Below the pieces are notes generated by a model. That model saw only the letters and a program-made list of their open reading frames with translations. It did no database searches and was not told where the DNA came from. Below, piece by piece: positions 6,598 to 58,713 of a stretch of DNA of 64,000 nucleotides (position 1 is the stretch's first letter; every line of letters begins with the position of its first letter). The translations under genes and the position numbers were made by a program. Origin of the DNA: Flammulina velutipes (taxonomy: Eukaryota; Basidiomycota; Agaricomycetes; Agaricales; Physalacriaceae); the NCBI GenBank assembly GCA_011800155.1, contig CM022370.1, forward strand, positions 124,001-188,000, given 5' to 3'.

Positions 6598-6598
6598 A

Positions 6599-7399: not shown

Positions 7400-8264
7400 C
7401 CGTTGTTTCTCTTCATCAATTCAGCGGCAGTGGTTAGACTGGCCTGAACCTCCTCGCGCAGGAGCTGCAGGTTCGTAAGGCGGTCTTCAACCGACGGGAT
7501 CTTCGAAGTCGGGTTGAGTGAGGGGTAGAAGTGGGGTTGGAAACCATGGAGGAGTTCGAAGGGTGACTTGCCCGTCGCGGCGTGGACACGGATGTTGTGG
7601 GAGAACTCCGCGTATGGGAGGTACTTCACCCAATCGTCTTGTCGGTAGTTGCAGAAGACGCGTAAGAACTGTTCAAGCTCTTGGTTGAAGCGTTCGGTCT
7701 TGCCATCTGTCTGGGGGTGATACGCGGTACTAAGGGCAGAGGTGATACCTAACTTAGCGTGAATAGCCTGCATGACTTTGCTGGCGAACTGGGGTCCCGG
7801 TCGGAGATCATCTTGTCCCAGAGACCGTAGCGTCTGAACGTGTTGTCAATGAGAATGTCGACGGTCCCATCCGAGTCAATAGTTTTCTTGCACGGAGTGA
7901 CAATGACGGTCTTGGTGAGTCGATCAACGACACAGTGAATGGAGTCGTAGCCGTCAACTTCTGGGAGGTCGGTGATGAAATCGGTAGTAATCGTGCCAAA
8001 AGGACGGTCAGGGATTTCATTGGGGACAAGAGGGACATGGGCGGGGTGATTATTCGGTTTTGTCAGCTGGCAAGTGGCGCAGCCATCGACATAGTCACGG
8101 ACGAAGACCGACATGCCCGGCCACCAGAATTCGCGACTCAGTAGTTCATAGGTTTTGAATCGTTCGGGATGGCCTGGCCCTACAAGATCATGGTGCATCT
8201 TGACGATGTCTCGACGGAGTTCGAGGTCAGCGGGGACATACACCTTGCCACGGAAGAGAACGAT
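7400..8264 (-). pseudogene. gypsy-2 integrase remnant (C-terminal half of the split pol)
   Basis: On the minus strand this encodes the continuation of gypsy-2 pol: LFRGKVYVP, the zinc domain (HHDLVGPGH...CATCQL), integrase core D in TTDFITDLP and D in ISDRDP, and E in the TDGKTERFNQ motif. A single missing base near 7795 breaks the frame between the second D and HPQTDG. The remnant stops abruptly after AELMKR near 7,405, where gypsy-1 sequence begins. The first codons join exactly to the end of pol at 23,729 if the 15.5-kb transposon and one AACGAT are removed. Confidence 0.9.
8259..8264 (+). repeat. target site duplication AACGAT, left copy
   Basis: AACGAT directly precedes the left terminal inverted repeat and is found again at 23729-23734 after the right one. 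One copy is enough to restore the gypsy-2 reading frame (DGIVLFRGK), so this is a duplication made at insertion. A 4-bp reading (TCGT on the element-sense strand, with the repeat one base longer) cannot be excluded. Confidence 0.9.
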
Positions 8265-8290
8265 TATGGTTGACCTAAACGACATGCTCA
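8265..8290 (+). repeat. left terminal inverted repeat of the giant transposon
   Basis: It starts TATGGTTGACC and ends ACATGCTCA; its reverse complement is found without mismatch at 23703-23728. The two ends lose similarity right after these 26 bp. Confidence 0.95.
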
Positions 8291-8728
8291 AAGCCGATGA
8301 TGGCCGAACAGGGTAATCAGCGACTCCTGGCACCACAGGGACGATAGACATAGACACCCTCCCTAGCTTAGCTACTTACGCCTCCCAATCACATCCACCA
8401 TGCCTATCATGATTAGTGATAATGGCGAGGAGAACTTTCAATTCTTGCCGTAAGTCATTTCTTAGCTCGTGTTACGCCAAGTTGAGAAAGGTCTAGGAGG
8501 AGCAACAATGTCATTCGATATCCTGGTACACGACACAATGTACAGGTCGAGATCATGTGGCGTAGCTTGACCAGGTAAGAACTGTCTGATTCTTGACCGC
8601 ATTACTAACTCGTCTAAAGATATCCACACGGACTATGGAATCCTTTTCATATGACTATTATTTCAATCGTCGCAGATCTAGAATAGTAGTAATTCCACGA
8701 ATAGATAACTGCATGTACAACTAACAAG
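8291..8728. other. left subterminal non-coding stretch
   Basis: This stretch lies between the left terminal repeat and the stop codon of the dioxygenase gene. I see no ORF or clear repeat here. It presumably holds the gene's 3' end and possible subterminal transposase binding sites, none of which I could identify. Confidence 0.5.
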
Positions 8729-11700
8729 CTATTCACTCAAGAAATGTTCCCATCTCATTCGTACTATCTCCTCATCCTCTGCGCTAAGCTGCTCCCTCAG
8801 TGCGACAAGATCCTTAAACATCAAAGTGTCCAAACGATCGACCTTGCACAGAATATGCTCCACGGTTAGAATGTTGAAGTTCATTCGTTCCCGAAGATGT
8901 AAAGGCAGAATTTGAACCAGAAAGTCGTGTACGTCTGTTATCGCATTAGCGACGGCTGCCACACTGTCGACCTGGTAGCCCAAAAGAATTAATCCCTTCA
9001 GTGCTCCTTTGTCCTCAAGTTTACTGCATAGACGTGTGGCAAGCTCTTCAGGCGAGGGCATTAATGCAGCGCCAGCAATAGCGTAATCGCCTGCCAGGAC
9101 TAGTGCACCGAGAGGACCTAATCCATTGAATGCCTTGACCGAACGTTTGTTGACCCTCGTCTTGACCTTTAACAAGTGGTTATAGAGCCAAGAGAAATTT
9201 GGGCGTTGTGCGTGTACGAGCCAGTCGGTGACCAATGGATCCTGAACACTATGTGCGTAGGAAGCCACCACATCTAAACTCCTTCTGGTCCAGCTGCCAT
9301 AGGCATTGGAGTTGCAGAAATACTCCTCTTCTATCTGGTTCCCGTCCTCATCCTCAACGTCATCTATTGCTGCCAACCATTCGTCAAGATCGTGAAAGAC
9401 AGTGTGTCGCTGTTCTAGCAGGAAACGACTATTGTGGGTGACAGCTCGATAGATGACAGCGCTGAAAAGGCCATAGGCCGTATGAAGATGTGGTGGGCTG
9501 AATGGCCCATTGTCGAGGACAACAGCACGCGACTGCGCTAGGTCACGCCATGGGTTTTGCTTGTCGCTATAGTCCTTGATATGCTCCACAAATGCTTGAT
9601 ACTTGATGTCAAACGCTGCCACAGCGTACGATGATTCCGGATTACTGGGAGGAGGAATAAAGTTGTCGACAGCAGCCAGAGGATATAATGGTTCGAGAAG
9701 TGTGCGCAGACGATCCAGACCTACGGAGGATGAAGACCAGGAAAATGGTGGTGGTACATGCATAGAGGGGGACCATGGACAGCCAATGGTGTCTTTGAGT
9801 TTTTGAGGAAGATATCGTTGGGCGTCTGAACGCCAGATATCCACGATAGTATCAATGTCATCCACAACGCCACACTCCTCTTTTGATCCAAGCCTGATAT
9901 GCCTGTTACACCACTGTCGTACGCGCGCTAGCGTTGGAGCAGAGTCTCCCAGACCATTGAAAAGATCTCTCTTCAAATGGGTGCATCCCAGAAGGACACG
10001 TCGAACTAGCAGAATGCCTGGTCCATATGAAGCAACCAGACGGAAGACTAGCTCTGCCTGGGGACGTCCAGCAGTGAAGGTACTCTTGAAGTCCAGCCAT
10101 GAAGCTACTGTTTTCAGAACACGGTCCTTGACCAGGTCAGATGGGGGATTGTAGCGAGGGTTCTGGGGAAATGTCATCGTTACGATGGCCCGACTGCGAG
10201 GAATATTGAGGGTGGGAATATAAATGGATGCATCCCAGACTTTGATAGGTTGCGTTCGAGCTAACTGAGGAGACTCAAAGGCCATTTGGATATCCTGGCA
10301 AAGACGCGTCAACCAGTTCTTCTTCGACGCTAATGCCTCATCAACCTCTGCCTCTAACCATTTCCACATTGCCATGCTATGCAGCAGAAAGCACTGCTCG
10401 TGAATCCGCGCCGTCATATCACTAGCATCACTCTGTGCCTTCAACCACCGGATATGATCTGCAGCAGCTGACACGCGGCCTACAGCATCCTCTTTGGCGA
10501 CAACAGCATCGCAAAACGATGACCAGCTCTCCCAATCCTCACCAATAACTTCCATGGTACAGGCTTTGAGCTCGTGTCTTGTCATTTCGAGTTCACTTAG
10601 AGTGAGCGCTTCCATGAGGGGAGGTTCAACGATGGTGTCATTGGTGTCCAACGTAGTGTCCGGTGTCAATGAAAAGTTCACTGATGAATAAACGTTGGTA
10701 CGATACATCCATAGAACACTATCTTGCGTTACCTGATGCACTGCTATTAGGCTTCTGCTTTCCCTTCCCTTTCCTCTTTGGTGCAGCTTCCTCCAGAGAA
10801 GTGACAATCTTTCGACACTTGCGAACTGGTCGTTTATCCGTGGCATCGTGCTCTGACTCCTCATCAGAGGACACAACATCCTTGCGGGCTTGCTTGCGCT
10901 TGCGTGGAACTACTGTGGAGTCCATAGGATCTAACGCGCCTGCTCGAGCGTCCTTGAAGATCGCTAGAATTTCAAGTCAGATTTCAACAGACTCGTGCAA
11001 GAAGATATCTTACATTTGCGTAATGCAGGAGTGCCTCCGGGTGGCCCTTTGGGGCGCTGAGCTAGAGCACAGATTGGAATGCCCTGAGCGTGTTGATTTG
11101 CCAAGGCGTCAAAGTTCTCTCCAATGGATCCATCAAGCAATGGGTTTCCAAAGGCAAATTTCTGGCGAGTGGGATCGTCAGAGGCTTGTAGTCGTCGTGA
11201 TGTTTCGGCATTCTGAGGGTAGGGAGGAGATAAGGGGACCAGACTGGTCGATGGCACACTAGTAGATGGTCCGGGTTGGCAGTCACTGGAGAGCCATCCT
11301 GGTCCAAGCGGCCACGGTTGAGCTTCAATACGTTGACCGTTGCTAAGCATTGAAAAACAGGACAAGAATTTGTCTCTGTCAAAGCGAACCGAGAGCTCCG
11401 CGGGGGCCTGTAATAACGCAAACGCTACCTTCTGGCAGAATCCCCGGCTCACAAAGTTCAGATACGACTGGTCTTCCATCATGTTTATCCCGTCTGCAAT
11501 CAGATTGCACTTGTTTGATGTCACCCGTGGTGCGAAGAAGTGAGATGGGCTGCTAAGGAGTTAGATGAGAGCATGAAAACTATGAAGAGACGTACATCGT
11601 CAATGCCTGCATTTCTATAAGAATGTGTTCTAAGTCCTTGTTCGTCGAACCTCCGCTGAACGCCCAAGAGGACTTGCCATCATAAAAGGGAGTGGGACAA

Positions 11701-13144
11701 TATGAGACTGCCGTGATCCGTGTATACGGTGTGTCGTCCTGATCTTCATTGCCAGGGATTGACTGTGGTAGGCATCCCGTATGCATGTAGAGGCCAGAGA
11801 ATGCCACGGATGTGTCCTCACAAACTATCCATGCAATGCCCAGCTCCAGGATGAAGAATAATTGCTCTCGAATGCGAGGATCATCTCGAGATAGCATGTG
11901 CATCACTGTGAACAGCGCCACAAAGTCCGCCTTGTCTAGATGAACGCCACCAAAGCGACCTAGTTGGGTAATCGGCCCTGCGGTCTTGAGAATCGTGTTC
12001 ACTCGTTCTTGCAAAGTATCCGCCGGGTCGCTATTATTTTCTCTCTCTGGAGACACATGAGTATACCAACAGTCGATAGCATTGAACACTGCATACCTGT
12101 ACCCGCCAAATTCAGTTGAAACACTGATGAGCAAAAGTTGTCCTCAACACCAATGTGCGGCATATTGATAGTCTCTATCTGGTCAACAATTGTCTGAATT
12201 TCTTCGGGTGCCATGCCCATGCGCATGACCTTTTGAGCGCACTGTGCAGAAATCTAAATGGTAGGAGTGGTTAACTTGAACCGACGTTCTCCAAATATCC
12301 AACACACCGATATCAATTGTTTGCGTCCTTGAAAATGACCGTCATCGGGGTCATTCTCTGTGGCTCTCATACTTGCAGTTGGACCCGATAGTTTTGGAGG
12401 ACGTTGATAACTCATCGTGAGTGTGTACGCCCGCGTATTCTTCTTGACGGGCATTGCCCTGACAGAGCGCTCGAATTGGGTACCTCCTTCGAAAGAGCCG
12501 TCCTTGTGTTTGATGGGTGCAGTTGCCGACAAGTCCTCTGGTTTACCCAGGATCCAGTCACGGGCAGCATGACGCTGCGCAAGTTCATCTGCCGTGAACG
12601 ATTGGCTAGATTATCTCAGTAACGTTCAAATAAAACTTTAAACTGGAATACGCACCGACCCAGCGCCCAGCTCTTGAGTTGATCAGCTTCTCCAGGCGTA
12701 CCATACTTGTTCCGGCTGTAAACGACTGGTTGAAGGTGTGGGTTCAATTTGAGGATACCTGGGGAATGTAACACCTAAGCATAGCACACAACAAATGGCT
12801 TGAGTGCACGTACCACCAAGTGTAAATGGGTCTTGGTCTCCTATATTCTTGAGGAGCTCTGCATGGCCCGCTTCGGTAAAATCCCCATAGAGAACGTATA
12901 TATCACCCGCATAGCCTTCAGAACGCTGTGGATGGTGCGAGCATTTGTAGACGTGGGGTAGAAGAGGATGGCGACCTGCGATGTGAATTCGTTCGGCGGA
13001 AGGAGGAGGCTGGTTCGTCGTTGGTCGGTGATCCTTCAAGGAAGCTGTCTGGAGTGGGGCATGAACAAAAGCACCTGGCGCAGACGCTGAAGACGCCGCT
13101 GCCGCTGCCGCACGCTGAGCGCGAGTCTGTATAAAGGAGGCCAT
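8729..13144 (-). CDS. TET/JBP-like 2OG-Fe(II) dioxygenase with a long C-terminal extension (1,351 aa)
   Basis: Eight exons (13144-12814, 12758-12656, 12605-12308, 12253-12103, 12046-11596, 11552-11014, 10963-10733, 10680-8729) join in frame into 1,352 codons; every intron is 43-56 nt with GT-AG ends. The catalytic core carries the iron ligands H330-x-D332 (in GGVHLDKAD) and H383 (in FSGLYMHTG). R404 (TRITAVSY) is a candidate 2-oxoglutarate arginine. This pattern resembles the fungal TET/JBP-like dioxygenases, some of which oxidise 5-methyl bases in DNA; the substrate here is unknown. Residues 640-700 are very basic (PRKRKQARK, KRKGKGKQK), which suggests nuclear import. The last 650 residues are unknown. 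It lies next to the left end of the giant transposon and points outward. Confidence 0.75.
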
Positions 13145-13174
13145 GAGGGAGACACGAGACTCCTAGCACTCCCA

Positions 13175-13880
13175 CATACCCACCACCCGATCAACAATGA
13201 CGGAATGTCGCCTCTGTGTCTATGATCGAAGAGGTCGCATTGCGTCACAGGACAAGTGCACTTTGAAACGAAATTCAAGGGAGACGATACTGGAGGTCTA
13301 TGTACAAATGTCCCAGATGTCCCTGAGGTGTAGAGCCGCTTCTCCCCCTCCCCCACTACGTGAACACTCTAACGAGACCGTATCCGTATGCAGCCATCAT
13401 TGGAAGGAAGTGCCCGCTTCCGAAGGCACAAACCGTCTCGTCGACAGATGGGGCCAGTCTTGCCATGGTGCGGGGGAGTCAGTTGTCAGCGCACGAGATT
13501 GGATGATGTTGCGAGGGCTCGACACTGCGATGACACAATGAAGCCTCTTCCTCTATGATCGGAGAGGTGGCTTTGCGTCACTGACTCGACGGTCGACTGG
13601 TAGGGCACATCACCGTCGTCTCCGTGGAAAATGGACTGTGTGGTGTGGTCAGAAACGTTGGAAGACAAGGTCAACATAGAGATACATACCAAATAAAAGT
13701 GCACCGTCCGTAGTGGGTTGGTCGATGTGATAAGACCCTCGTCCTTAGCATTTTCCAGCATCCTGTGGGCCTTCGTTTATGTGGGACGTCCTTCTGCTCA
13801 TCAAAGTTAGCATAGGTGTTTGAGGTAGTTCGATATCAGCTGACAGTACCAGTTTCCGGACTGATCGTGTCCTCGTCACT
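13175..13880. other. degenerate non-coding stretch with short repeats
   Basis: No convincing gene. The string TCTATGATCG(A/G)AGAGGT with similar flanks occurs near 13,217 and again near 13,551, so this looks like decayed duplicated sequence. It lies upstream of the dioxygenase start. Confidence 0.4.
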
Positions 13881-13899
13881 TGAAGCGTCCTTCTGAATC

Positions 13900-15720
13900 A
13901 CGCGCGCTAGAGTCTCGACTTCCGCAGGTAATCCTTGAGCACGTCTTCCTGTGGGACGCCTGGCTTGTCTCCGTCTTTCTCTTCCGCATCTGGAATGATT
14001 CTCTCGGTGTTCGGTTGGAGGGTATAAGCATGCCCAGGCTTGGGAGGAGGAGATGTCGAAGCGCGGCTAACGCGTCCTGTTGAATATCCTGGGAGTTGGT
14101 TGGTCAAACGAGTTCTCTAGAGTACTAAGATATACATACGGTTGGCGTATTCGTCATGATGGTGGGAAAGCTATGCGTGAGATCGCAGGACAGTGAGAGC
14201 GAGACCGGTGCCAGCTGAGTCTCCGGCGAAGACTATCTTTGAAGGTGGGATAAGTTTGTGAAGTGCGCTTGGAGGCGGATCGATGAAGCAGAAATCTGTT
14301 GATTGTGATATGAACAACATAAGAGCGTGGACACGCCTTCAGCACTCACAAGCAGCAAGGACATCTTGTATTGCGCACGGCCATGGGTACTGAGGTGCTT
14401 TCCTGGACGAACGTTGAGAGCTAAACCTAACTTGACTTTGGAAGGACATGGACCTGTAACTTACAGCAAATGCGCTTACGAGCTACATGGATGGTCAGAT
14501 TGGGCGGGTGAACGCATTCTCCAAGCACCGTAGCGGATCGTCCGCACCAACGGGACGTGAACTCTGGCCGTCGTTTTAAAGAGACTCGCTGGACCGGTCG
14601 CCCTAACATTCATGTTCGACGAGCCATTGAGCGGGACCCTGGCCTTTTTTTCATTCTAGAGCATAGCAGACGTCAGTCAACATACAAATAAAGTAACATT
14701 TACTCACCATTTCGTGAACGGGCATGGATTATATCGGTGTCGGGCCATCCAAATACATGGAGAGCGGGGACTGAAGCGGGGTTCCCAGGTGGCGTTGGAG
14801 AGAATAAAAGCTGGTCGCTGACGAGAACCCCCGAACCCAGATGATCTAAGCGCACAATATGACAAACATTGTACTGAAGGGTGCATGCCACTGATTCGGA
14901 CAGAGGCGATAAACAAGCAGGTAGCAACGACGTTGAAAAAATCTCTGGGTATGCACGGCCAACGAATGCATGTCTCGTATCCTCTGTGAGAGGTTATCAT
15001 TATAATGGATGAGATAGAAGCATACATGAACTCACCATGGCTTCGGAGAATAGTATTACAACCTTCCAGGATGTATCTCTTGACGCCGGGACCCAGGTGC
15101 GTCCAAGCATTGGACGCATGTTGATCAAACATAATTGTCAGCCAGCTCGACGGAGGGCAGCGAGCTTGTCATTTCGCGGATCCAAGGTACATAGTTGGTT
15201 CATTCGTTCGTTGGCAGGGTCTACTAGAATAATGCCAACGCTACTGAAAGATTAGCTGGTGTCGGGTCAATAGGGAACAAACCGACCTTTCCAGTTCATT
15301 CTTCAAACATGTTGGTTCGTCGGTTCGTTCGTTGACGGAGTCTAAGCAAATGGTAGGCAGATGTCGGGGCATTGTCGAGTTGGAGGCACTCACCGATCGC
15401 GCCACTACCGATCGCGACTGGAGCTTCCGTATTCTGGGAGAGCGCCTATCACACCAGTTGCACCAAGATTCCTGTTCGACGAGCCATTGAGCGGGAGGGA
15501 TAGGAACAGGGCTAATTTTTTTTGATTCTGTAACAGATAGGACGTCAGGCAATAACCCACAGACTGTAACATTAACTCACCATATCGTGAACGGTCACGG
15601 AAAGCATGGGTGTTGGAACATCGTAACGTGTGGAGAACGGGGACCCAAGAGGCAGATGGAGGAAGCTGGAGTTGGTCCTTGCTCTGCGACAACGCAAATC
15701 AGCAAGCGTCGGTCGGAATG
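13900..15720 (-). pseudogene. alpha/beta-hydrolase-like pseudogene with a duplicated segment
   Basis: On the minus strand near 14,209-14,227 the code reads VFAGDSAGTGLAL. This GDSAG motif is the nucleophile elbow of hormone-sensitive-lipase-type esterases. The frame stops a few residues later (LRSHA, stop), and the surrounding fragments lie in different frames. A segment starting TGTTCGACGAGCCATTGAGC occurs twice, at about 14,613-14,830 and 15,473-15,690, in the same orientation but clearly diverged. So a cargo hydrolase gene seems to have been partly duplicated and then decayed. It may once have been useful cargo of the giant element. Confidence 0.5.
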
Positions 15721-16332
15721 CAGCTAAACGTACACTTGGCGCTGGGCTAGAAACAGATGCAACCGCACGAGTGACGACGGAGTAAACAACCTCTTGCACA
15801 CCGTCTTGCAATCCTGAATGGGTCGTCCACAAACCGCAAACACGAAAGGCCTGTCCGTGCCAACAGGAAGATAGCACTCCCCTAATGGCGCCCCAAGCGC
15901 GTCAAGATATAACTCGATGGCCAGGTGTTGCAGGAAAGCGATTGCGTCGAGGTAAAACTCGGCACAATGCAACGAGAATGATGGCGGGAGGACATAGGTG
16001 CTTTTTAGGTAAGCCTGTTTGGATTGGGCTAAGCGCGCGCGTACTACACCTCAACTTTGTCGCTTAGTGTTAAGAATCACATGATTCGTTTGGCTGGACT
16101 CTATCCCTGCCTTCACCATCTATCGCCGTGAGTGGCCAGTGTTCGAGTTTTATCTTGAACGTGTTCGTCCTGCGTTCCGATTTTTACATTGGAACGTATA
16201 TGACATTCGTCTTCTACGACGTTTGTATCCTTTCCAGAGCCGCCCTAGATATTTTTGGAAAGTATCAGCATTGAATACTCTGCCAGTGCGTAGGATGTTC
16301 GTTCTCAGTGTATACTGCTTACCTATATATCA

Positions 16333-18507
16333 GTGCTCAAATCCTACGAAGGCAAGGTCGGGAGACGCTTCCCCGAGAACAATGCATTCCTCACTTCGCC
16401 CAATATGGACACCATCCCCAACCCTCTTTTCGGTGAACGGACAATCTGCATGCTACGCGACTACCACTTCGGCGCAGATGATCCTCTATTCCATCCGCAA
16501 CCTTTTGACATACGTACCCCACATCTCGCCCTCATTCGCCATCCTTTCAACATCTCCAGTGCTGAGAGCATGTTATGGTTCATCCCCCTCAACGAAAAGG
16601 GCCATTTCGATCCCGTCGCCGTTGATGGCCCATCCAGCGGCCTTGGGATGATCCATCTTCCTTTCCTTCAAGTTCTCAAAGGCATATATCAGGATGTTGT
16701 CAAGCGCTATCGACAGGAAGCACAACAAACCCCTTCCTACCAGGCGAGCATCACGGATGATGCATCCACCAAGGACTACCTAGCGCGTCTGAAGTTTCTT
16801 TTCGTTCGCCTTGGAATGCCAGCCTCCTACGACGAGAGTGTTGTCGTCTGGTGCCTCACGCAACGTGTCCTTCTCGAATTGGAGGCTCGGCTGACATGGC
16901 TTATCGATACACGCAAAACCTATTACACCCTCACTGCTAAGAGGTCTGGCGTGCGCAACGTTGTGGGGGCTTTAACGGATAATCTTGAAGTGGCCGAAAA
17001 TTTGTTCCGTGTATGTACTACGTTTCAATCTATGCTACTCATGGAATGACCTGTCCATGGATCACAGTGTGGTGTGCCTGTTTGGCTGTCGCGCCTCCTT
17101 GCTGCCTCCGTGGGTAATTTGGTAGAGCGTTGGCTGGATGATATCCCAACCGACCAGCTCCCTCCCCGGAAAATGGATATCTCTATTTCTTACAAGGCGG
17201 CCTCTCCTCCCCATCGGGTGATCTATCGAGGCCAGGCGGGTCGCTTGGAACGCTATCGTGCCATGGCCGTCTTCTTGCGACATCTTGCCTCTCCCAGTGT
17301 GCTTTATGGTGGAGCGGGGGCCATTGTTCCTGCTTCCTCTTTACCTCTGTCATCTTCGCGTCCGTCCACTGCATCGTCGTCGCTTCCGTCCACTGCTTTG
17401 TTGTCGCGTCAATCAACCTCATCGTCATTACGCCCAACACCTTGTATGTGTGATCTTTAATTCGATTGGGGGGGGAGGGTTCTGACATAACGTTTACCAG
17501 ATACTAGGGCAACACCTGCCCCCAAGGCCGAACGGGACAAGTTTGCAGAGCCGTCCTCGCCTATGATGCCTTCTTCAATCGGCGGGTGGACTGATGCATT
17601 GAGGGCGGTAGGGGAGACTTTCGATGCTACGGTTCCCGCTCCCACAGGTGTTTCGCGAGGATATGCGATTCCCGATCCCGGTCTTATTGCTTGCACTGAA
17701 AAAGATACCACACGGGCATTCATGCTCACAGCGTACCTCAAGCTGCGCCTGGTCATCCTCTATCGTCTAGGATCCACCTTCTTCGAGCCTCTGGGTACGC
17801 CAGTGTGGCGCAAAGTCCTCACTTTGGAGTTAGTTACCTTGTCGAAAGAGGGTACCAAGACAACGAAGATTCGGGACGACGCCAAGCACAATCTAGTCCG
17901 TTGCATGGTAGAAGGTGGCCTCCAAGGTTCGGTCGACTTCAACAATCTCCTGTCAACGCCGACTGTCTGGTATTCCCAATCTCTTCCCCCAAATGTCCTC
18001 CCCTCCACGTTGATTGTTCGGCAAATACTTTGGGAACTGTATGAGGTCAATTTTCGATACGAGTTAACCACTATCGACCGTGAATACTACGAGCTCAAGG
18101 ACATTGGATTTGACGATCCTCACCCCGACGATGAGCCTGGTCAAATCATGGAGTATGACGAGCTCGATGCATCAGACTATGGAGACCGGAGGTTTAAAGT
18201 CCTGACAGCGATTCCCCATTTCAATGGCAGCCTAGTACCTCAAGGTCTGAGTGACGGGACTGCGGGCTTTGCCTCAAATACTGTTGAGGGACGGCGAGAA
18301 GCACTATGGGGGCTTTACCGGGTCATGCGGGGATGGACAAAGACAGTCGGGATGTCAGATACGACACACCAATTAGTGCGTGGTCTAGAGGCTGGGACAC
18401 TATCAGGTGATGATTTGGATCAGGTAGAGTATCGTTTGGCCTGGTTCTATATCCAGGCATATGTAGCGCACTTTAAACGTGCCCCGCTTACTCCTCATCG
18501 TCTCTAA
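16333..18507 (+). CDS. unknown cargo protein of the giant transposon (at least 685 aa)
   Basis: Three exons (to 17010, 17068-17443, 17501-18507) join in frame over GT-AG introns of 57 nt each. The 5' end is uncertain: a 44-nt intron ending at 16333 would link to an upstream exon within 16139-16290, which has no clear ATG. The protein has an N-terminal part with aromatic and charged residues (MLRDYHFGADDPLFHP), a Ser-rich linker (residues about 310-350) and a C-terminal half with an acidic patch (DDPHPDDEPGQIMEYDELDASDYGD). No known domain or catalytic motif was recognised. It lies between the hydrolase remnants and the alpha-kinase, towards which it converges. Confidence 0.75.
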
Positions 18508-18680
18508 TCTTTTGGACTCAGAATACCATAGATATGCTGTTGGTTGAGGATGTTCACATTACTTGTTGGTCTACTGGTAGTCGATATTTCCATCTTGTAA
18601 TCTGTGTATGATATATAACCATGGTGAAAAGATGGTTTAGATGCCTGACTCCGGAGCTCACTCTCCTTCTAACTTGCGCG

Positions 18681-18697
18681 ATCATCATCATCATCAT
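18681..18697 (+). repeat. ATC trinucleotide microsatellite
   Basis: Five and a half ATC units in the short space between two convergent genes. Confidence 0.8.
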
Positions 18698-18726
18698 ATT
18701 CAATGAGACGTGCATAGTTATTGTAG

Positions 18727-21511
18727 CTATTCCATGACCACTGCGTTCTCCTTCATATCAAATGGCACCATTTTCATCCAAAGACACCAGCTATTGCACT
18801 GATGACGATGAGGAAATTCGTTGAATGCACTAGGTACATTCCCATCGCCAAAGAGTCCTTTCTCTGCCACGTTAAGCTCACTGAAGGAGATTAATGAAGA
18901 AGACAAAGACCGTAATTGAACGTACGGAGAGGTCATGACTTGGGCGTCAGATAACTGAAACCCAAATCCCTGAAAGTCGGACACATAGGCCAGAGCTTTG
19001 GTTTTGACATATTGCACATGTTGGGCCGCACTCAAGAACTCTGCCTTTGGATATTCAAGACTATGAACATCCATGGAGTCGATGGGATTGGGTGAGCCAT
19101 TATGAATCCATTTAATGAAGTCCTGGCCTTCGGGAAAAATAATGCGATCCTCTACGAGAAAGGTGCGCTGTGGTGCGACACCGTTGATCGTCTTGCCATC
19201 GTCAGGTTTATATATGACACAGACGCCAGCCTGAACATATTGAAAGCGAGGAATAGACAGTGTTGGAGGCGCATGATCTTGATCGTTATCAGTACGATGA
19301 AGGATTTCATTTTAAAAAGTTCAAACCTTCTTGCGATAAGAGAGAATCGATCCAGTCGTAAACCAGCTGCATTAGAAGTGACGCCCAATAGTGTGTATTG
19401 GCCTCTGTCATGATCATTTGGAATTCGATAGTTCCATCATAACGGTTGAATGCATGACTTTTGGAGGGACTTTAAGAATCAATGTGAGTGATAATAGACG
19501 TAGAATAGATGAGACATACTTTTTCTTGTAGGGTACTAGACCCTTGTAAACCTGCTTGAGACAGATGTCCTCTCCTTTGTTGAGAGCGGCTAGACCAGGA
19601 TAACGCTTCAAGGTATCGGGATGTGGCATCAATTGCACTTGTGCAAGGTGACAAGTCTTGAAAGTGCCAGCGCCAAGTATTGCGTCTCGACGGAAGTCAA
19701 CCTCCAAGTAACAGGCACTAGATATTTTGTGAGTTTCCAAGCTCCATTTAACCTTGTCGGGATCGTTCAAAGCCTCTTGAAGAGTTACAATAGGAATGAT
19801 GGCCAGAGATACATTGGTGAATGAGGTACGAGTCACTGGTAAAAAGAGTTAGTGGCAATATACGAAGGAGGGATATGAACTTGCATCGAGTTTCAGCTAA
19901 ATTTCCGCCACCAGCAATGAGACCATTTCGGAAAAAGGTACTGGGTGGCGATGACCAAGGAATGGATTTCTTGCTGTTCGGTGGCGTTGTTGAGATGGCC
20001 AGAGATTCCTGACGAGAATGTTTAGAATGTGAGGAGATTTTGATGAGAAAAAACAAACACTGCACTCGCGTTTAGAGGGCTTGGGGGATACTACCACGGG
20101 AGTATCATGCTCGAATGGTGTCAGAGTATGATTATACTGTAATGGCGCCAGAGGTTCTTCAAAGTCAGAGGGATAGACAACCTCACGGGATTTTTGTCGT
20201 TTCTCTCGCTGACAAAAATGAGATAAAGGAAATGAGATCGCGTCAATAATTATACCTCTTGTTGAGCCTACAAAAGATGTCAGATCAAGAGTATAACCAA
20301 ATAGGGACGTAAATACCAGCCAAGTTTCCTCTCCCTGCTGGAACTCTGACCACTGATCACTGTCCACAACAATCCGAAGGCGAACAAATTTGGTGGGACG
20401 TTTGAAGATGAAATGCTCTGGATTCTTTTTGTCCCGAACGAGCGCATACTGACGCAGATATCCTCTCTGACCATCGCGCACAGTCGGCCCTTCTAAATCT
20501 ATCCCATTGCCGGTCCTGCTCATCGTAAGACCGAAATCATGAACTGAAAACTGTGAAGGTCGCCATGTGAAAGGAATATCACCCTGATACTTCTTCAGAG
20601 CAATGAGAGCGTATTTGACAGCGTCATGGACTACCTCCTTCAGTGGAGTATTGCAATCATAGTCGCGGTTGCTGTTCTCGAGTCTCTGAATAGCAAATGA
20701 GATAATGATGAAATGAGATAAATGAATACGGACGTTTAATTCAATGACTTTGTCTGACCCAAGATCACGATAGCCAATAGCATAAGTAACCCCGATTATC
20801 TCTCCACTAGGAGCATAGGCATTCCCTTGTTGGCGACTACGCTCTTCTGCATAAATATCATGAGCTGCTGTATATCCAGTAGCACGTAGACGAGTATGGC
20901 CGTGAGAATGTCCTGAGGTATTATGCCCTCCATAGATATTGACGACTGGTCCAGATCCCATAGCTGTGACTTGTTCTTGACCGTGAATTGGATCTATAAT
21001 ATAAGTGATCAGTCAACTGTTCCAAAATAATTTTAGACATACTTTTGCGTTGAGCTTGATTGACTGAGTGAGCGATGGCTGCAGGATTAGGGCGTAGGAG
21101 ACCTGGATTAGGACGAGGTGCATGAGGAAGTGGTAGGGGGGGAGGTGGCATGCGAGTATTGGCCCATGCTGGATCAGGGTATGGGTAACTCGATGACTGA
21201 GGTGCGCTAGTCTGGACAGGACGTCGTTGACTCTGTTCTGCACGTCGCGCAGCTACAAGCACAGTATAAATAATAATTAAATTATAATTGAATAGGAACA
21301 TACTATTAGTTGCTCGAGGAGCATAATCCAGCTCATGACAGCTGGTACAGACGATTCGTTGGCCTCCTTGACCATTGCTGTAGATGTAATATTCATCACC
21401 AGCAGGAATAGCTGTGGTTTTGCCGCGACATTTACCAGGTCGACGACCACAAGTGATGACAGTGGTAGCAACTTGCGAAAAGCCAACACCAATAATACCT
21501 AGAGTGTCCAT
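18727..21511 (-). CDS. alpha-type protein kinase with N-terminal zinc-binding motif (giant element 1)
   Basis: This multi-exon gene encodes an atypical (alpha) serine/threonine kinase. The N terminus has four cysteines (C21, C28, C55, C58; GKCRG...VCTSC) that probably bind zinc, then a Pro-rich linker. The kinase domain shows the nucleotide-binding start GAGTFKTCHLA, a lysine in ICLKQVY, the catalytic region VSDFQGFGFQLSDAQVMT, the Gly-rich loop GLFGDGNV and the zinc-binding end HRHQCNSWC. Most introns are about 45-63 nt. One near 19,843-19,886 appears to be a GC-AG intron beginning GCAAGT. The gene is divergent from the integrase, with 197 bp between start codons. A paralogue with the same layout lies at 59745-62641. 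Targets are unknown. Confidence 0.85.
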
Positions 21512-21708
21512 GAGAGTAGCAAGAAAAAGGAGACGTACACAAGTCTGGTTTTGCCTATGCGTGAACCCGGAACAATCTTAAAATGCCCATATGGGTGATG
21601 AATGATTATTGGTGGAAAAAACCTTATTTAATCAGTAGATAAGGGCGGACATGACCGAATGTCCGGTTGTCTGTTACGCAAGCTCTTCGACGTCGAGCTT
21701 GTAGAGAA
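21512..21708. promoter_or_regulatory. shared divergent promoter of alpha-kinase and integrase
   Basis: Only 197 bp separate the two start codons, so the promoters must overlap or be shared. This suggests that kinase and integrase are expressed together. No clear TATA box was identified. Confidence 0.55.
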
Positions 21709-23512
21709 ATGCCAAACCAACATCTCCCTAATCGTAAGTGTATTTATTGACATTGACATGTACTGAATAGTAGATAGCTCCACTTGAGGATATAGCCCCA
21801 ACCATTGTTCGACTATGGGATAGACAGCTATCTGATACTGTTATTCTTGAACGCCTGAAGAAGAGACACTTTGATACTACAAAGTATGGGCTAGGGTATG
21901 TTCCTTCTGGCTACGTATAGTGATGATTCTCTGATACTGTTTGACAGGATCGTCAAGTTTCGTCAGATACGCGAGAGTCTAGGTTTGTTAACGGCAAGAA
22001 AGACAAGTGCGTAGTCTGCGACAAGTACCTGATCTAGAATCTGACGTAGATTCACAGAAATGGCAGTAGAGGAATTATCCCCAACAATGATGACTCTCCG
22101 AACAATGTATCCCAAGGCTGGGAGAGGAGAACTTGGTCGGTTGCTTCGTGAAGAATACAAACTACGCATTCCAAGGTACTTGATTCAATCTGATCCATGC
22201 TATCAACTCTGATAATGTCTGAGGCGTATTATTATGCAATGGTGCCATACTTATGAGCCTGACCTGGTGCGTGGACGTCGACGAGGAAAAATGAGGCGCA
22301 GTAGATTTTGGTCGGCTGGTATCAACGATGTCTGGTGTGTCGACCAGCATGACAAGTGGAAGAAATACGGCCTCGCACTTCATACCTGTATTGACCCCTT
22401 CAGCGGACATATCAAATGGCTGAAGATATGGTGGACCAACAATAATCCACGACTTATCTTTAGCTATTATCTTGAGCGCATACGACTTGACGGATGTAAG
22501 TACTTCATTGAGATCTTGTATCTATACTGATTCATTAGCTAGATACCTGTATGGTGACACAAAGTGATCCTGGCTCAGAGAACTTCTGCCTGGCAAAAGG
22601 ACACTCCTTTATCCGTCAATCATTGGACTCTTCATTACTTGGCACTCTGCAACATCGTTGGAAGCACGACAAAAAGAATATCCCTCCAGAGATCTTGTGG
22701 TCGAACTTGCGCCGACGATTTACTCCAGGATTTGAGAATATCTTGATGTTTCCTTCACTCGATGAGGGCCTTGTACGCTATGACCCTAAGGTCCCTCTGC
22801 AATAGTACGTCTATTGAAGTTCATCTCAGATGTCTACTAATAGAACTTTCAGTAATGTTTTCAAGTGGCTCGTCATACCATGGATACAGGCAGAGCTAGA
22901 TGCGTACACAGCGAGTGTCAATCGTACAAAAAAACGTCATCAGCCACATAAGGTGACACCACAGGGAGCGCCAGACGATATTATCGAGTATCCTGAGGAG
23001 TATGGGTGCACAGATTTTCGAGTACGTGCAGCGTACTTTTGAGGAGAGGAATCAGTCATTGACCTAGCCTTTAGATCCTTGTCGACCGTAACGATGAATG
23101 CTTGCAGGAGGCTGAGAGACTTTACGCACCTCCCGACCATCACGTCTTCCAGCTGGTATCACCTGACTTTGCGCAGTGGGCAGAGATGTATTACGCTGAC
23201 TTGGGCCGACCAGAGATTACACGGGACTGTATCTGGAATGTCTACATGGCTATGCTTCGACGGTTTGAGGGTGATCAACGGGTTTTGGACTCTCTTACGA
23301 TGGAGGGGTTTTATGACGAACAGATAGATCCTTTACAGCAGCAAGTGGAAGCCGAGATTGACGCAGAGGTTGAATTATTGGATGGGGATGGTCAGGACTA
23401 CTATATGGGAGGCGTCAATGGAGGACTTGGACCAGAGGATGATGATGATACTGATGCTATAAGGGATGCAGATGCAGTAGCAGGCTACGTAGATTTCTCA
23501 GACGACGAGTAG
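21709..23512 (+). CDS. DDE integrase, probable transposase of the giant element (486 aa)
   Basis: Eight exons (21709-21733, 21778-21895, 21948-22006, 22058-22175, 22224-22495, 22543-22804, 22853-23021, 23075-23512) give exactly 487 codons including the stop. The N-terminal third looks like a helix-turn-helix DNA-binding region (KKRHFDTTKYGLG, KFRQIRESLGLL). The core has D147 (WCVDQHDKW), D206 (TQSDPGSENF) and E247 (PEILWSNLRRRF), a complete retroviral-type D-D-E triad. The C terminus is acidic. From memory it matches the integrase-core family common in Agaricomycete genomes, mostly annotated only as hypothetical or integrase. It ends 191 bp before the right terminal repeat. It probably cuts and joins the element ends in the nucleus. 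Confidence 0.9.
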
Positions 23513-23702
23513 TACTGGACAATGCTATGATGTCATACATCCTCTAATCTCTCTTGGTGCGAAGGTGCCATGATGTCATCACTCCACGTTCATTTAAATT
23601 GTTATTATTATCGTTGAGGAATTATAATTGGTGCAAAAACGCAGTGTTCGAGGTCTTCTACCTACTTTGGGACAAAGGCAATCAGCCGAACGTGATGGGA
23701 AC

Positions 23703-23728
23703 TGAGCATGTCGTTTAGGTCAACCATA
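23703..23728 (-). repeat. right terminal inverted repeat of the giant transposon
   Basis: It reads TGAGCATGTCG to AGGTCAACCATA on the plus strand, the exact reverse complement of 8265-8290. Confidence 0.95.
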
Positions 23729-23734
23729 AACGAT
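23729..23734 (+). repeat. target site duplication AACGAT, right copy
   Basis: Second copy of the 6-bp duplication; see 8259-8264. It lies inside the coding sequence of gypsy-2 pol. Confidence 0.9.
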
Positions 23735-51675: not shown

Positions 51676-51702
51676 TTATGGAATACGGGACTGTCATGCT
51701 CT
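51676..51702 (+). repeat. candidate left terminal repeat of the second giant element
   Basis: TTATGG, then 13 bases, then CATGCTC: the same two blocks with the same spacing occur at the ends of giant element 1. About 17 of 27 positions agree. The place is right, between arm B and the stop codon of the dioxygenase gene. The preceding 6 bases, TCATCT, would be the target duplication. Confidence 0.5.
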
Positions 51703-51868
51703 GCACGGATCACCGGCATCAGAATTTGTAAGCAGGACCTCCAATACCGCGCTGGCTTAAGTACACGAGGCAGTTCCTAAGTACACGAGGCTTCTGCCTT
51801 ACCTAAGGGCTAAGGTCTTAAGTCAAATGCGCCACATCAAATATGATTGTACTGAATCAATTGTTGGA

Positions 51869-54800
51869 TTAGTCTAAGTTGGCTCTATCTCTCCAAAGTA
51901 GATGAAGATCTGGCCTCAAATGAACTGCACGGTCGTAGCGCTGGGCGGCAGAGACATTCTTTTCTGGATCGGTTTGATGATAGCCGCTGCTGGCACGCTT
52001 AGCCACGGGCACGGGGATCCTATTGGAGGCAGGTTGCCGGACTTGAGTAGGAAGTAGACTGCTGTTAGAGGGAATATGCTGATCGATGCTGTCCAAAGGG
52101 TCACCATCCAGGGTAGATGGTGTCTCAGAAGAAGGAAGCATAGTGCCATGTAAGTGGCGCGAGTCAAATGTCCTATAGAATATCTTAGTAGGGGGAATAG
52201 CTGCGAAAGAAAACGTACCAGAACAAGTTGCTTTCTGTAGCTATATAATATCCCCACTCAGGTTGGCAGAAAGCAAACTCATCCAGTGCGCGTATACCCC
52301 GCCAACGAATGGTGCAGCAGAATCCACGCGACGCATCCTTATCCCTATGTAGAGGAGCTACATAGTCACTGCAGCGGAAAACGTTAAGACCAGACATGCC
52401 TATATGGTCCGTCATTTTTACGGTATCGCGAATCTTTTTCCAAAGGCCGCGAAAGGCAAAAGCTGCCACACATTCTAAGAAGAAGGCATCCTTTTTGGAA
52501 GTGGTTAATCATCGTTGAGTGCTGTAAAAAAACGCACCTCTGCTATATCCATCAACGCATGAATGCCTTTGATGCTTTGTGCCTCCATGCGCGCGTAGTA
52601 AGAATAACCATCTCCAAGGGCACCACCTTTGCCTTGCCGGCCTGCACCTCCTCCATACATATCACCCTCAGAGTAATTGGCAAACTTTGCTCCTCGTCTC
52701 AGAGGAGACATGTCTTTTGTGTATATATTAGTAATTTGGTACGCAAATCAGTTAGCAAGGAGACGTACAGCGCATATTTCTTTCATGATGTCTTTGTTTC
52801 TCTAAGACACGTTGACTGAAGGGTTGGAAGAAGATTCCATCCATCTGCGCTAGATCAGGAAAAAAAGAGAAAAAAGATACAAGATCAACAGACTCACAAC
52901 ATATTCATGCTTCCAGCTAACGAGCTTGCCTGTGTTATCTAAAACGGGAACATCGACAAAGTCTGGTGCAGTTTGCTCTGAGTATACTGGGATGTTTTCG
53001 CGGTTGGTATCCACAATATAGAATATCTGACGGTTGCAGCGTGCAATGATGTCGGGGTCTGAGCGGATTGCTCTGAGCTTGAGCTCGTCCGGGTTATACA
53101 CCTTTGAAGTTCCCTACAATATGATTAGACAAAGTAATCTTGAATTGAGAGCACTTACAACAGGATTTTCTCGTCGTTTAGGGCAGTGACTGATTCCGCA
53201 CCCAGTCATGTGGTCAATATTTAATCGACGAGTGACATAGACGACCTGTGTACACTGCTGCTCTGGCACTCGGTTACAGCAGTAACGACAGCTCCGAACC
53301 TATTGGAATAGATGAGACAGAGCTTAAAGTGAGTCTAACTTACCTGCTGATATAAAACTTCCCCTTTCTTCTCTCTCTCTAACAGTTCACCCTATTTAGA
53401 ACACTTAGTTACTTTTATTGAAAATGAGGAGGTGACTGACTTTGGTAATAATATTGCGCCGCAAAAAAGTGGCGTACTCCTTCTCCATGTCTTTGGCCTC
53501 TATAAGTCGTGCAAAAATAACCTCCAAGGTGTTGGTGTGGTCGTAGTGACCTTTACGATACTTTTCTCCTGTGTCCTTGAGTAAATACTGCATCATGAGA
53601 GCGTAAAAATGTCCCCGGGTCTTGGCATCATCACCAATGGTGTCCAAGTCGTAGCCACCTGCTTCGAGAGCTGGTCCGATCCACATGTCGTAAATGCGAA
53701 GAAAGTTCTCTAAAGAGTGAAGGAAGAAGACCGTCTCCGGAATAGCTGCACGGGGTAGAAGCCACGGAGTATCAGTCAGAGCCTTTCTGAACTGGGACGG
53801 TTTGGAGATTCGGCGTTTTGCATCATGCTAACAGAGAGTCAATCTGGAGTCCAAAAGGATACAAGAACAACTAAACTTACCACGGTTTTATCGAAGCGAA
53901 CAGCCTTGAAAAGCAGGGTATGAGGTGTCCACGACAAACTGAGAGAACTTGGCGTCCATTTCAGGAGTAGTACAGTTAAGCTGTCTTGAAGACGCTGATG
54001 TCGAAAGACATCTACTATATCATTCTCATTGTCGAGGCCTTTTGCTAGACCAACGACGTAGTTAGGATCCCCGACGCACATCATTACGGCGGCCAATCCA
54101 GAATCCTAACAAGACGTTCAAACATATCGCAAAGAAGAGAGCTATCAACTCACAAATACAGCGTGACGCCATTCACGGGTATCATAACGTTGGGCTTTGA
54201 TAGATTTCATCCCTTTAAGAAGCCAACCGGTGGCGCGACGCTTAGCTTGATGTAGATTTTTGGGCTTAGAGTATTTGAGCCCTTCAGCTAGATAGGTCCG
54301 TCGTAATGCCTGGCAGAGTGACACATAGTCGAGCGTCAAAACCTTGTCAAACATCAGTATAGAACGGCAGCAAGTCAAGGTTCATGTACCTTAGTCTTCA
54401 TATACTGCTGTGCTACATGATGCAAACCCGGCAAGACTCTGCAGAAAGCTGTGGCCCATCGCACACAGAGATCGTGGTCTGTAGCCTCACGTGGAGTTCT
54501 AAAGTCCGACACGAGCTCTTCGGGCTGTGAGTCCACTCGACGACGTTTAGAAGGAGGAGAAGAACGTTCAACGGGTTCCACAGGATCGGGCTCTTCGACG
54601 AATTCTTCGTCGGAGTCGAAGTAATCGTTTTCAATCTCCCATTCCGTGTCGCTATGGTCGGTGTCATCGGTGTCATCTGCATCCTCCATCTCTTCAGCCA
54701 ATACACCCAATGCATGCATGGGTTGGCGCTGAATGTGGCTTTGGCGTGCGCGTGATTCTTGCTGAGAGCAGGATAAATGGCTAAAAACAGATGTAAAGAC

Positions 54801-55201
54801 GTCAAACTCACTGATAAATGGCTACGGTTTCGGTATTTCTCCAATATGGTTTGAATGTCTTCTCTGGGAGTACTGAGGGCGGTTCGGCACAGAAAAACAT
54901 CGGTGAAAAGATCAACGGCGTCACGGAAGTATACACCGGTCATGTCATAAGGAAGCCCCAGTGTTTTGTAGTACCAGAAGAGGGCGCAGTATTGGTGGTC
55001 CAAAGATTGACTCCAGTGGTTGGAGAGACTCCGACGCAGACCGTCGACCGTAGCTCGAGTGGGGGAGACGGAAGACGACTGAATGAATTTGGCACAATCA
55101 GAGGGGAGAATGGCGAAGAGGGCGGGTGGGACTTCTTCAGGAATTTCAAAAGCGAAGAACATAGACTCCCCGTCGAGGGGATTGTGCAACGAGACGGTCA
55201 T
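51869..55201 (-). CDS. 2OG-Fe(II) dioxygenase-like protein of the second giant element (931 aa)
   Basis: Twelve exons join to 932 codons: 55201-54812, 54761-54390, 54342-54154, 54105-53881, 53827-53441, 53391-53344, 53299-53159, 53113-52898, 52844-52769, 52713-52538, 52490-52219, 52172-51869. An acidic stretch and a basic signal (PSKRRRVD) lie near residues 150-200. Residues 541-576 form a Cys/His cluster (CRYCC...C...H...CGISHC), likely zinc-binding. The C-terminal catalytic part has H788-x-D790 (APLHRDKDAS) and H837/H839 (DSRHLHGTM). This is a double-stranded beta-helix dioxygenase of the broad TET/JBP-like fungal type, but a different subfamily from that at 8729-13144. DNA or protein could be the substrate. 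Confidence 0.65.
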
Positions 55202-58200: not shown

Positions 58201-58713
58201 GTGTCGCCAGAGGGAGGCAGCGAACGATGGCAATGGAGCAGGAAGGGGTGGAGTGAGGTGACAAAGTCCACGGTGGAGCGCTTTTTGCAACTGAAAGGCA
58301 GGGGCGGCGAAGGAATGGAAGTGTCCGCTATTGGGAGTAGGAGGTCCGGCGTCGTTGAGATGCACCAACAGAGGAGCAGGTGGGTGTTAGGAAAGGGAAG
58401 GCGGTGCAAGTGACGGTGTGGGTGGTAGATGTAGTGCGGTTCGACGGTAGAGACAGATTGAAGGTCCGGGGCTAGGGAACATGAGAGAGAGAGAGTGTTG
58501 GAGAAAGGTGGGGATAGGAAGGAACCGCTGGACAGGCTAGGTAGCGCCTACCACTCGCCCCACGCATTGGGGACGTTGGCTCGAGTGAGCAGAACCAGAG
58601 AAGAGGGTTTTAAAGGAGAGGAGGTAAACGATCGACGATCAGGGATCTGCCGACACGTGTAGTCATGTGATCAATCTGAACCGAGTGACGCAAGGCAAGG
58701 CCGCGCGCTCAAC
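55202..58713. other. 3.5 kb without a recognised gene
   Basis: Many ORFs of 60-230 codons occur on both strands (the longest at 57676-58368, minus) but they are Arg/Ser/Pro-rich, overlap each other and show no domain. The region lies upstream of the dioxygenase and may hold decayed cargo, as 13.2-16.1 kb does in the first element. Confidence 0.45.

What the first reader, a model, noticed from the sequence alone, without database searches (positions are those of the whole stretch)
8259..23734. Complete 15.5-kb integrase transposon carrying an alpha-kinase and a TET/JBP-like dioxygenase
Seen: 26-bp perfect inverted ends, AACGAT on both sides, and a gypsy pol frame that is restored when the element and one AACGAT are removed. 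Inside are an intact-looking D-D-E integrase, an alpha-kinase, a 1,351-aa dioxygenase-like protein and an unknown protein. Known: fungal TET/JBP genes have been linked to KDZ transposons, and large cargo elements of ascomycetes (Starships) use tyrosine recombinases. I know of no described class with this integrase, these ends and this cargo. Inferred: the integrase is the transposase, and kinase and dioxygenase help the element act on chromatin or host regulation.
Basis: partly seen in the sequence, partly recalled or inferred. Interest (0 to 1): 0.96.

Follow-up and report, generated by a model that had tools for sequence, protein, structure and literature searches.

The report
Mushroom jumping gene carrying epigenetic enzymes
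This is a complete, recently inserted fungal jumping gene of a recently described kind (IS3EU) that carries, besides its own integrase and a kinase, an enzyme-like gene that may erase DNA-methylation silencing; the kind is known, but this form of it and its position in the element look new.

Summary
Positions 8265-23728 form a 15,464-bp transposon with perfect 26-bp inverted ends (TATGG..CCATA) and a 6-bp duplication (AACGAT) inside a gypsy pol gene. Four gypsy paralogs, sampled from 20 other matches, show the uninterrupted site with one AACGAT, so it is no assembly error. Five such elements were found in this genome, each with its own 6-bp duplication, an integrase and an alpha-kinase; one (51677-65300) lies partly in this window. 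The class is known: IS3EU (Kojima 2025, PMC12730594). What looks new is the cargo. A gene at the far end, not between kinase and transposase as in rust IS3EU, encodes a 2-oxoglutarate-dioxygenase-like protein in two very different versions. Neither matches Pfam's Tet_JBP, and a word-based search of 5.8 billion proteins found no relative. In the window's version the motif H-x-D..H..R-x5-Y follows TET. Integrase, kinase and dioxygenase-like gene evolve under strong constraint (dN/dS 0.05-0.19). The fourth, 'unknown' gene belongs to a family often found beside resident TET/JBP-like genes; it differs between two copies whose ends are about 97% identical. DNA demethylation is inferred, not shown.

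The parts
8259..8264 (.). left target-site duplication AACGAT
   Evidence: single copy in 4 of 4 sampled empty gypsy paralogs
8265..8290 (+). left terminal inverted repeat, 26 bp, TATGGTTGACCTAAACGACATGCTCA
8729..13144 (-). 2OG-dioxygenase-like gene, ~1,334 aa, 9 exons in my model (12814-13144, 12656-12758, 12308-12605, 12097-12253, 11596-12046, 11453-11549, 11014-11407, 10742-10963, 8729-10680); motif H332-x-D334, H385, R406, Y412
   Evidence: dN/dS 0.10 against the C9 copy
16081..18507 (+). 'unknown' cargo gene, ~710 aa (6 exons in my model; the 5' exons are uncertain); family also found beside resident Tet_JBP-like genes
   Evidence: replaced by a relative 48% identical in the searched exon in the C9 copy
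18727..21511 (-). alpha-kinase gene, ~812 aa, 8 exons; catalytic domain at the C-terminal end
   Evidence: Pfam PF02816; motifs conserved in the four elements aligned; dN/dS 0.19
21709..23512 (+). IS3EU-type integrase/transposase, ~447-475 aa, 8 exons in the model (N-terminal exon joints uncertain); D-D-E = DQHDKW, SDPGSEN, PEILW
   Evidence: Pfam PF24764, above cut-off as spliced model, below it as single exon; 463 homologs E<=1e-3; D to D 59, D to E 41 residues; dN/dS 0.05
23703..23728 (-). right terminal inverted repeat, 26 bp
23729..23734 (.). right target-site duplication AACGAT
51677..64000 (+). second IS3EU element (E3b), which continues to position 65300 beyond the window (G000:C3:175677-189300, 13,624 bp, TSD TCATCT): HxD protein 51869-55201 (-, three model pieces), small gene 58714-59614 (+), alpha-kinase 59745-62800 (-), integrase 63229-65169 (+)

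Best explanation
The finding is a complete, probably autonomous IS3EU DNA transposon of a mushroom-type fungus (host name not given; inferred from the integrase's relatives). Shown: ends, 6-bp duplication, empty paralogous sites, five elements in the genome, gene content, purifying selection on integrase, kinase and dioxygenase-like gene. Inferred: the D-D-E integrase recognises the TATGG..CATGCTC ends and inserts the element with a 6-bp staggered cut. The alpha-kinase, always next to it and in the opposite direction, controls the transposase or a host factor by phosphorylation. The left-end protein, a TET/JBP-like Fe(II)/2-oxoglutarate dioxygenase, oxidises methylated bases on the element (perhaps with the TET-associated 'unknown' protein) and so relieves silencing. 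Left and middle slots hold interchangeable cargo; integrase and kinase are the constant core.
For: Ends plus perfect 6-bp TSD at 5 of 6 integrase matches. All 8 matches of the kinase exon lie in these five elements. Gene order and directions - + - + in 4 of 4 elements without nested inserts, after leaving out six short models (158-371 aa) without a same-strand counterpart elsewhere. Class features agree with IS3EU in print. dN/dS between window and C9 copies: dioxygenase 0.10 (65 synonymous, 23 non-synonymous differences, 1,334 codons), kinase 0.19, integrase 0.05, no new stop in aligned codons; E3b against E8 0.04-0.105 in 7 gene pieces (only columns in windows of at least 50% identity, which lowers the values). 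The motif H-x-D..(53-55)..H..R-x5-Y is in 4 of 4 proteins of this dioxygenase type and in 3 of 3 resident TET-like proteins given (of 5 modelled); among 48 element models only the window and C9 copies of this gene have it, and 0 of 120 integrases. The same positions in CcTet are H326, D328, H376, R385, F391, with Tyr in human TET2. Profile match of this type to resident TET-like proteins: 1 of 300 column shuffles as high; to the E8/E5 left protein, trimmed to the motif region: 0 of 300. The same dioxygenase type lies within 10 kb of rva_4 integrases at 4 of 8 further loci, three of them apparently copies of one another.
Against: No Pfam family recognises the dioxygenase. A PDB search with a relative and one with a three-sequence profile gave nothing. 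No homolog was found by searches of residues 100-600 and, for the E8 type, 300-880. hhalign E-values are weak: this type to TET 0.012-0.015; this type to the untrimmed E8/E5 protein 0.11, trimmed 0.0018; E8/E5 type to TET not aligned (193 of 300 shuffles as high). The motif pattern was written after seeing the alignment, and 30 of 5,000 shuffled sequences contain it. The dioxygenase position differs from rust IS3EU, whose TIRs are also longer than 30 bp against 26 bp here. Six-frame matches in the C5 integrase and in the C5 and C8 kinases contain a stop codon each, introns or damage. Placement of the transposase in an IS3EU tree was not possible. Gene models are computed without transcripts.
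Confidence: 0.78

Rival explanations
1. A new, undescribed class of integrase transposon.
For: IS3EU elements with a dioxygenase-like gene are not among the Agaricomycotina carriers listed by Kojima 2025; Pfam calls the integrase only rva_4.
Against: Ends TAYGG..CCRTA, 6-bp TSD and transposase/alpha-kinase in opposite directions are published IS3EU features and are met here. IS3EU sequences are already annotated in mushroom genomes (Ganoderma; Phlebopus; passages).
Confidence: 0.05
2. IS3EU element, but the left-end protein is some other 2OG oxygenase (AlkB-like, protein or RNA hydroxylase) or no oxygenase at all.
For: No Tet_JBP hit, weak profile scores, and the E8/E5 version does not align with resident TET-like proteins.
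Against: R-x5-Y follows TET, whereas AlkB has R-x5-R (recalled); motif spacing is that of resident TET-like proteins; a homolog carries a sub-threshold chromodomain.
Confidence: 0.25
3. Kinase, dioxygenase and unknown gene are passively captured host genes without a role for the element.
For: The unknown gene has 42 matches in the genome, one elsewhere 78% identical, and differs between copies.
Against: Kinase beside the integrase in 5 of 5 elements; strong constraint on kinase and dioxygenase; conserved four-gene layout.
Confidence: 0.1
4. Assembly chimera of two gypsy halves around unrelated genes.
For: None found.
Against: Perfect ends plus TSD, five loci, empty paralogs, second copy with the same ends.
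Confidence: 0.01

Closest known systems
IS3EU superfamily, TET-positive families of rust fungi and Tuber (Kojima 2025, PMC12730594)
   Same: 6-bp TSD, TAYGG..CCRTA ends, D-D-E transposase, alpha-kinase in opposite direction, dioxygenase cargo
   Different: here the dioxygenase-like gene is at the far end beyond the kinase, of two types unlike the Tet_JBP model, with a further middle gene; TIR 26 bp in the window element against more than 30 bp; the paper's list of TET carriers in Agaricomycotina (Kyakuja, Zisupton, EnSpm, Plavaka, Helitron2) has no IS3EU
Styx (Zymoseptoria), IS3EU-related (PMC10853768, passages)
   Same: D-D-E transposase linked to IS3EU, 6-bp TSD, four genes, moving in pedigrees
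   Different: 7.9 kb, 36-bp TIR, other genes with GATA, CCHC and DUF3577 domains; the only 'kinase' in the text is a host gene
KDZ transposons (Kyakuja, Zisupton) with AG-type TET/JBP
   Same: carry TET/JBP genes in Agaricomycetes; this genome has 85 CxC2 matches
   Different: 7-8 bp TSDs, other transposase; none of the 85 matches lies inside the five elements, the nearest is 9.2 kb from the edge of E3b
Starships
   Same: large fungal element with cargo
   Different: tyrosine recombinase (recalled); here a D-D-E integrase

Membership tests
IS3EU | TA..TA termini, in fungi TAYGG..CCRTA | tested here: met
   5 of 5 elements
IS3EU | 6-bp target-site duplication | tested here: met
   5 of 5, five different sequences
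IS3EU, rust TET-positive families | TIR longer than 30 bp | tested here: inconclusive
   26 bp perfect in the window element; at least 45 bp identical in E3b; 29 of the first 30 in C5
IS3EU | D-D-E transposase of the rve type without upstream HHCC zinc domain | tested here: met
   rva_4 above cut-off for the window's spliced model, 20.2 bits below cut-off for E8, the other three not scanned as spliced models; no Integrase_H2C2 hit, while the gypsy pol in the window gave one
IS3EU | transposase falls in the IS3EU/GingerRoot clade | not testable with these tools
   no Repbase IS3EU proteins at hand
IS3EU, TET-positive type of Kojima 2025 | alpha-kinase gene in opposite direction to transposase | tested here: met
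   5 of 5 elements, one of them with the kinase broken by an insertion
IS3EU, TET-positive type of Kojima 2025 | TET/JBP gene between transposase and alpha-kinase | tested here: not met
   dioxygenase-like gene lies beyond the kinase at the other end
TET/JBP dioxygenases | match to Pfam Tet_JBP PF12851 | tested here: not met
   no Tet_JBP hit for either type, while a resident protein gave E 4.7e-7, itself below the curated cut-off, in the same call
TET/JBP dioxygenases | H-x-D..H..R iron and 2OG residues plus base-stacking aromatic at R+6 | tested here: met
   window type: 4 of 4 proteins; for the E8/E5 type only HxD and HG were found
TET/JBP dioxygenases | double-stranded beta-helix fold | not tested
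   structure tool switched off
TET/JBP dioxygenases | oxidation of methylated bases in DNA | not testable with these tools
   bench assay needed
KDZ transposons | KDZ transposase with CxC domains, 7-8 bp TSD | tested here: not met
   6-bp TSD; nearest CxC2 50.8 kb from the edge of the window element, 9.2 kb from E3b
Polinton/Maverick | 6-bp TSD with DNA polymerase B and integrase | tested here: not met
   6-bp TSD present, but no polymerase hit in 19 ORF pieces and 4 models of the element scanned
Starship | tyrosine-recombinase captain | tested here: not met
   D-D-E integrase instead; no tyrosine recombinase hit in the same pieces

The most novel reading that the evidence does not exclude
[quoted passage not shown] Relatives of the window's type carry a chromodomain-like stretch. 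The elements exchange these modules, and TET-partner genes, with other transposon families: a modular arms race against DNA methylation that annotation has missed because neither class matches a known family.
Probability: 0.4. Interest if true: 0.75.

Novelty: new variant of a known kind. Interest (0 to 1): 0.52.

Why it matters
If the left-end proteins are DNA dioxygenases, transposon-borne DNA demethylases are more diverse than the three types in print, and IS3EU elements of mushrooms carry them too. The genome gives a test bed: five elements with intact ends, a constant integrase-kinase core and two versions of the putative enzyme. It would make it directly testable whether transposons carry their own erasers of silencing, and what an alpha-kinase does for a transposon. 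It may also bear on the reported alpha-kinase expansion in rust fungi (PMC4469406, passages), which could in part be IS3EU copies (inference).

Tried and rejected
Rejected: new class (ends, TSD, kinase fit IS3EU); assembly error (empty paralogs); KDZ, Starship, Polinton membership (see table). Tried without result: Pfam for the dioxygenase, the unknown protein and the small middle gene; PDB sequence searches: a relative and a profile of the window's dioxygenase type (none), the E8 protein and an E8/E5 profile (chance hits only); homolog searches with residues 100-600 of the window's protein and 300-880 of E8's (0 hits; the remaining parts were not searched); TIR search around the C3:521-540 kb relative of the dioxygenase (none found); TIR search around the sixth, weak integrase match C8:168517 (none convincing); association of the unknown gene with KDZ CxC2 (4 of the 41 places given, of 42 found, within 5 kb; the background figure failed in that script, so this was neither shown nor excluded). 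Association of the unknown gene with Tet_JBP was then found: 4 of 9 matches, all nine below the cut-off, have one within 5 kb; in that search the E. coli control genome also gave a match below the cut-off. hhalign of the E8/E5 protein with resident TET-like proteins failed, and with the window's type it was weak until the protein was trimmed to the motif region.
Full report
What is there. The window lies in a 38.1-Mb genome of 23 contigs (G000:C3:124001-188000). Positions 8265-23728 are bounded by perfect 26-bp inverted repeats and by AACGAT on both sides. The flanks are the two halves of a gypsy pol gene. Joined with one AACGAT they read through in one frame. The genome holds 20 other matches to the right flank, 19 of them 95-99% identical. 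Four of them, sampled as 300-base pieces, run straight through the site with a single AACGAT (4 of 4). The element therefore inserted into one copy of a repeat, recently as transposons go, and duplicated 6 bp.

It is a family. The 26-bp end, with up to 3 mismatches, occurs at four places only: the two ends here and two on contig C9, 41.3 kb apart. The C9 copy has the same ends and a different 6-bp duplication, GTAAAA. Its extra length is mainly two inverted 11.4-kb copies of a repeat with 0.79-kb direct terminal repeats, presumably an LTR retroelement; the middle of the transposon between them is turned round. The integrase exon finds six places. Five of them sit in elements with ends TATGG..CATGCTC and perfect 6-bp duplications: C3 (AACGAT), C9 (GTAAAA), C5:2866182-2878908 (ACATTT), C3:175677-189300 (TCATCT) and C8:1516965-1530425 (CTAAAG). 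The sixth, weak match gave none. The C3:175677 element begins at 51677 of this window and runs 1.3 kb past its end. Exon-wise searching gives lower bounds, so further elements may exist.

Genes. A small splice-aware gene finder gives the same layout in the four elements without nested inserts: left gene on -, middle gene on +, alpha-kinase on -, integrase on +. I left out six short models (158-371 aa) that had no same-strand counterpart in other elements; in E3b the left gene, in C8 the kinase and in the window element the left gene first came out as several pieces. The integrase carries Pfam rva_4 (hand-joined model) and a D-59-D-41-E triad. It has 463 homologs at E<=1e-3 among the 8,000 candidates scored; of the 120 listed all but one carry an organism name, all of them mushroom-type fungi by my knowledge of the genera, led by Marasmius relatives. 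The alpha-kinase passes the Pfam cut-off and keeps the glycine-rich, VSDFQG, DGN and HxCNxxC motifs (roles of these motifs recalled). Its exon finds 8 matches, all 8 in these five elements. The Pfam model finds 8 matches, four of them elsewhere: C7, C2, C4 and C8:29751. Matches at C5 and C8 contain single stop codons, so the intactness of those elements is open.

The left gene. In the window and C9 elements it encodes ~1,334 aa with no Pfam hit. Its middle exon and C-terminal part find relatives at 8 further loci. Aligned with three of them it shows H-x-D, then F-x-x-x-E-L-G, F-S-G-L, a second His 53-55 residues on, Arg, and Tyr at Arg+6. The pattern is in 4 of 4 proteins of this type and, with 53-residue spacing, in 3 of 3 resident TET-like proteins given (5 were modelled); 0 of 120 integrases and no other gene of 48 element models has it. 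In CcTet the corresponding residues are His326, Asp328, His376, Arg385 and Phe391, with Tyr1902 in human TET2 (PMC11040006, passages). The pattern was written after the alignment, and 30 of 5,000 shuffled versions contain it, so the motif alone is not proof. Profile comparison with five resident Tet_JBP-like proteins scored as high in 1 of 300 shuffles, with the motif in register. The left gene of the C5, C3b and C8 elements is a different ~900-aa protein. Untrimmed it matched the first type only weakly (E 0.11). Trimmed to its HxDKD..HG region it scored above 300 of 300 shuffles (E 0.0018), but it does not match resident TET-like proteins (193 of 300 shuffles as high). Neither type has a database homolog at E<=1e-3 in the parts searched, nor a PDB match above chance.

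Selection. Between the window and C9 copies dN/dS is 0.10 for the dioxygenase-like gene, 0.19 for the kinase and 0.05 for the integrase, with no new stop in the aligned C9 codons; the five aligned blocks are 92.4-97.8% identical. The C9 dioxygenase and kinase genes are nevertheless broken by nested inserts. Between C3b and C8 it is 0.04-0.105 over seven gene pieces (filtered for well-aligned columns; three comparisons with C5 were saturated). These genes were working proteins while the elements spread.

The middle gene. The main exon of the 710-aa unknown has 42 matches in the genome. Four of nine Tet_JBP matches, all nine below the cut-off, have a family member within 5 kb. In the two loci read it sits next to the TET-like gene on the same strand (E 3e-39 and 2e-32). 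It therefore looks like a partner of TET/JBP genes. In the C9 copy this slot holds a relative only 48% identical in that exon, although the outer parts of the element are about 97% identical. The slot has been exchanged, probably by recombination between relatives. In the other families the slot holds an unrelated ~290-aa gene.

What it is. Kojima 2025 (PMC12730594; abstract, methods, sections 3.2 and 3.4, part 1 of 2 of the discussion and the legends read, other passages by term search) describes IS3EU families of rusts and Tuber with 6-bp duplications, ends TAYGG..CCRTA, TIRs over 30 bp, and transposase and alpha-kinase in opposite orientation. It states that all TET-positive IS3EU families have TET/JBP between the two. 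PMC10045372 (passages) gives TA..TA ends and usually 6-bp duplications for IS3EU as a whole. The features that could be tested are met, except the position of the dioxygenase and, in the window element, the TIR length of the rust families. The paper's TET carriers in Agaricomycotina do not include IS3EU. Its search started from known TET proteins, which would probably miss both types seen here. IS3EU sequences as such are already annotated in mushrooms (Ganoderma, PMC8955403; Phlebopus, PMC12411881; passages only). The supplement of Kojima 2025 could not be read, and Repbase is not at hand, so I cannot exclude that this very family is deposited. Six literature searches (titles and abstract starts of the listed papers seen) gave no other description of alpha-kinase with transposase in mushrooms.

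How it works, most likely. The integrase cuts and joins the ends with a 6-bp stagger (strongly supported by anatomy). The kinase is part of the core machine (supported by linkage in 5 of 5 elements and constraint), and its substrate is unknown. The left protein oxidises methylated bases on the element and so counters silencing (inferred from motif, from TET genes in sister transposons, and from constraint; probability about 0.65). The unknown assists TET-type enzymes (weak inference).

Verdict. The new parts are the mushroom branch with a far-end dioxygenase-like slot, the two unrecognised protein types in it, the exchangeable middle gene, and the evidence of selection on the cargo.

Noticed in passing
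window 51677-64000 (to 65300 on the contig): A second IS3EU element of another family lies in the same window, 28 kb from the first and running past the window end.
   Followed up: yes
L013-L017 (G000:C9:1942985-1984262): The C9 copy was invaded by two ~11.4-kb repeats in opposite orientation, presumably LTR retroelements; the ~5-kb middle of the transposon between them is inverted. Two ~1.5-kb inserts interrupt its dioxygenase gene.
   Followed up: partly
window 1-7390: This stretch is 99% identical to part of the same 11.4-kb repeat that invaded the C9 copy.
   Followed up: no
G000:C1:2940553, C8:958790, C8:2612044, C9:955256 (L038, L039): Resident TET/JBP-like genes (below the Pfam cut-off) sit next to relatives of the window's unknown gene, suggesting a conserved two-gene TET module.
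   Followed up: partly
L034 (C3:527001-534000) and L040 (C4:382501-386500): Relatives of the window's dioxygenase: L034 carries a chromodomain-like stretch (PF00385, 23.4 bits against 25.1), L040 a similar-looking one by eye; both lie near rva_4 integrases. Loci on C5 and C12 look like copies of L034 (equal match lengths and frames, not aligned).
   Followed up: partly
E3b against E8 elements: Synonymous divergence differs strongly between genes of the same element pair (0.24 for the integrase, 0.58-1.5 for the others), which hints at mosaic elements.
   Followed up: no
G000, 30 matches at about 17 places: The genome holds about 17 further rva_4 integrase loci besides the five elements; apart from one (C3:536 kb, no ends found) their ends and cargo were not examined.
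   Followed up: partly
G000:C7:425529, C2:74353, C4:913158, C8:29751: Four alpha-kinase matches outside the five elements.
   Followed up: no
G000, 85 places: The genome is rich in KDZ-type CxC2 matches.
   Followed up: no
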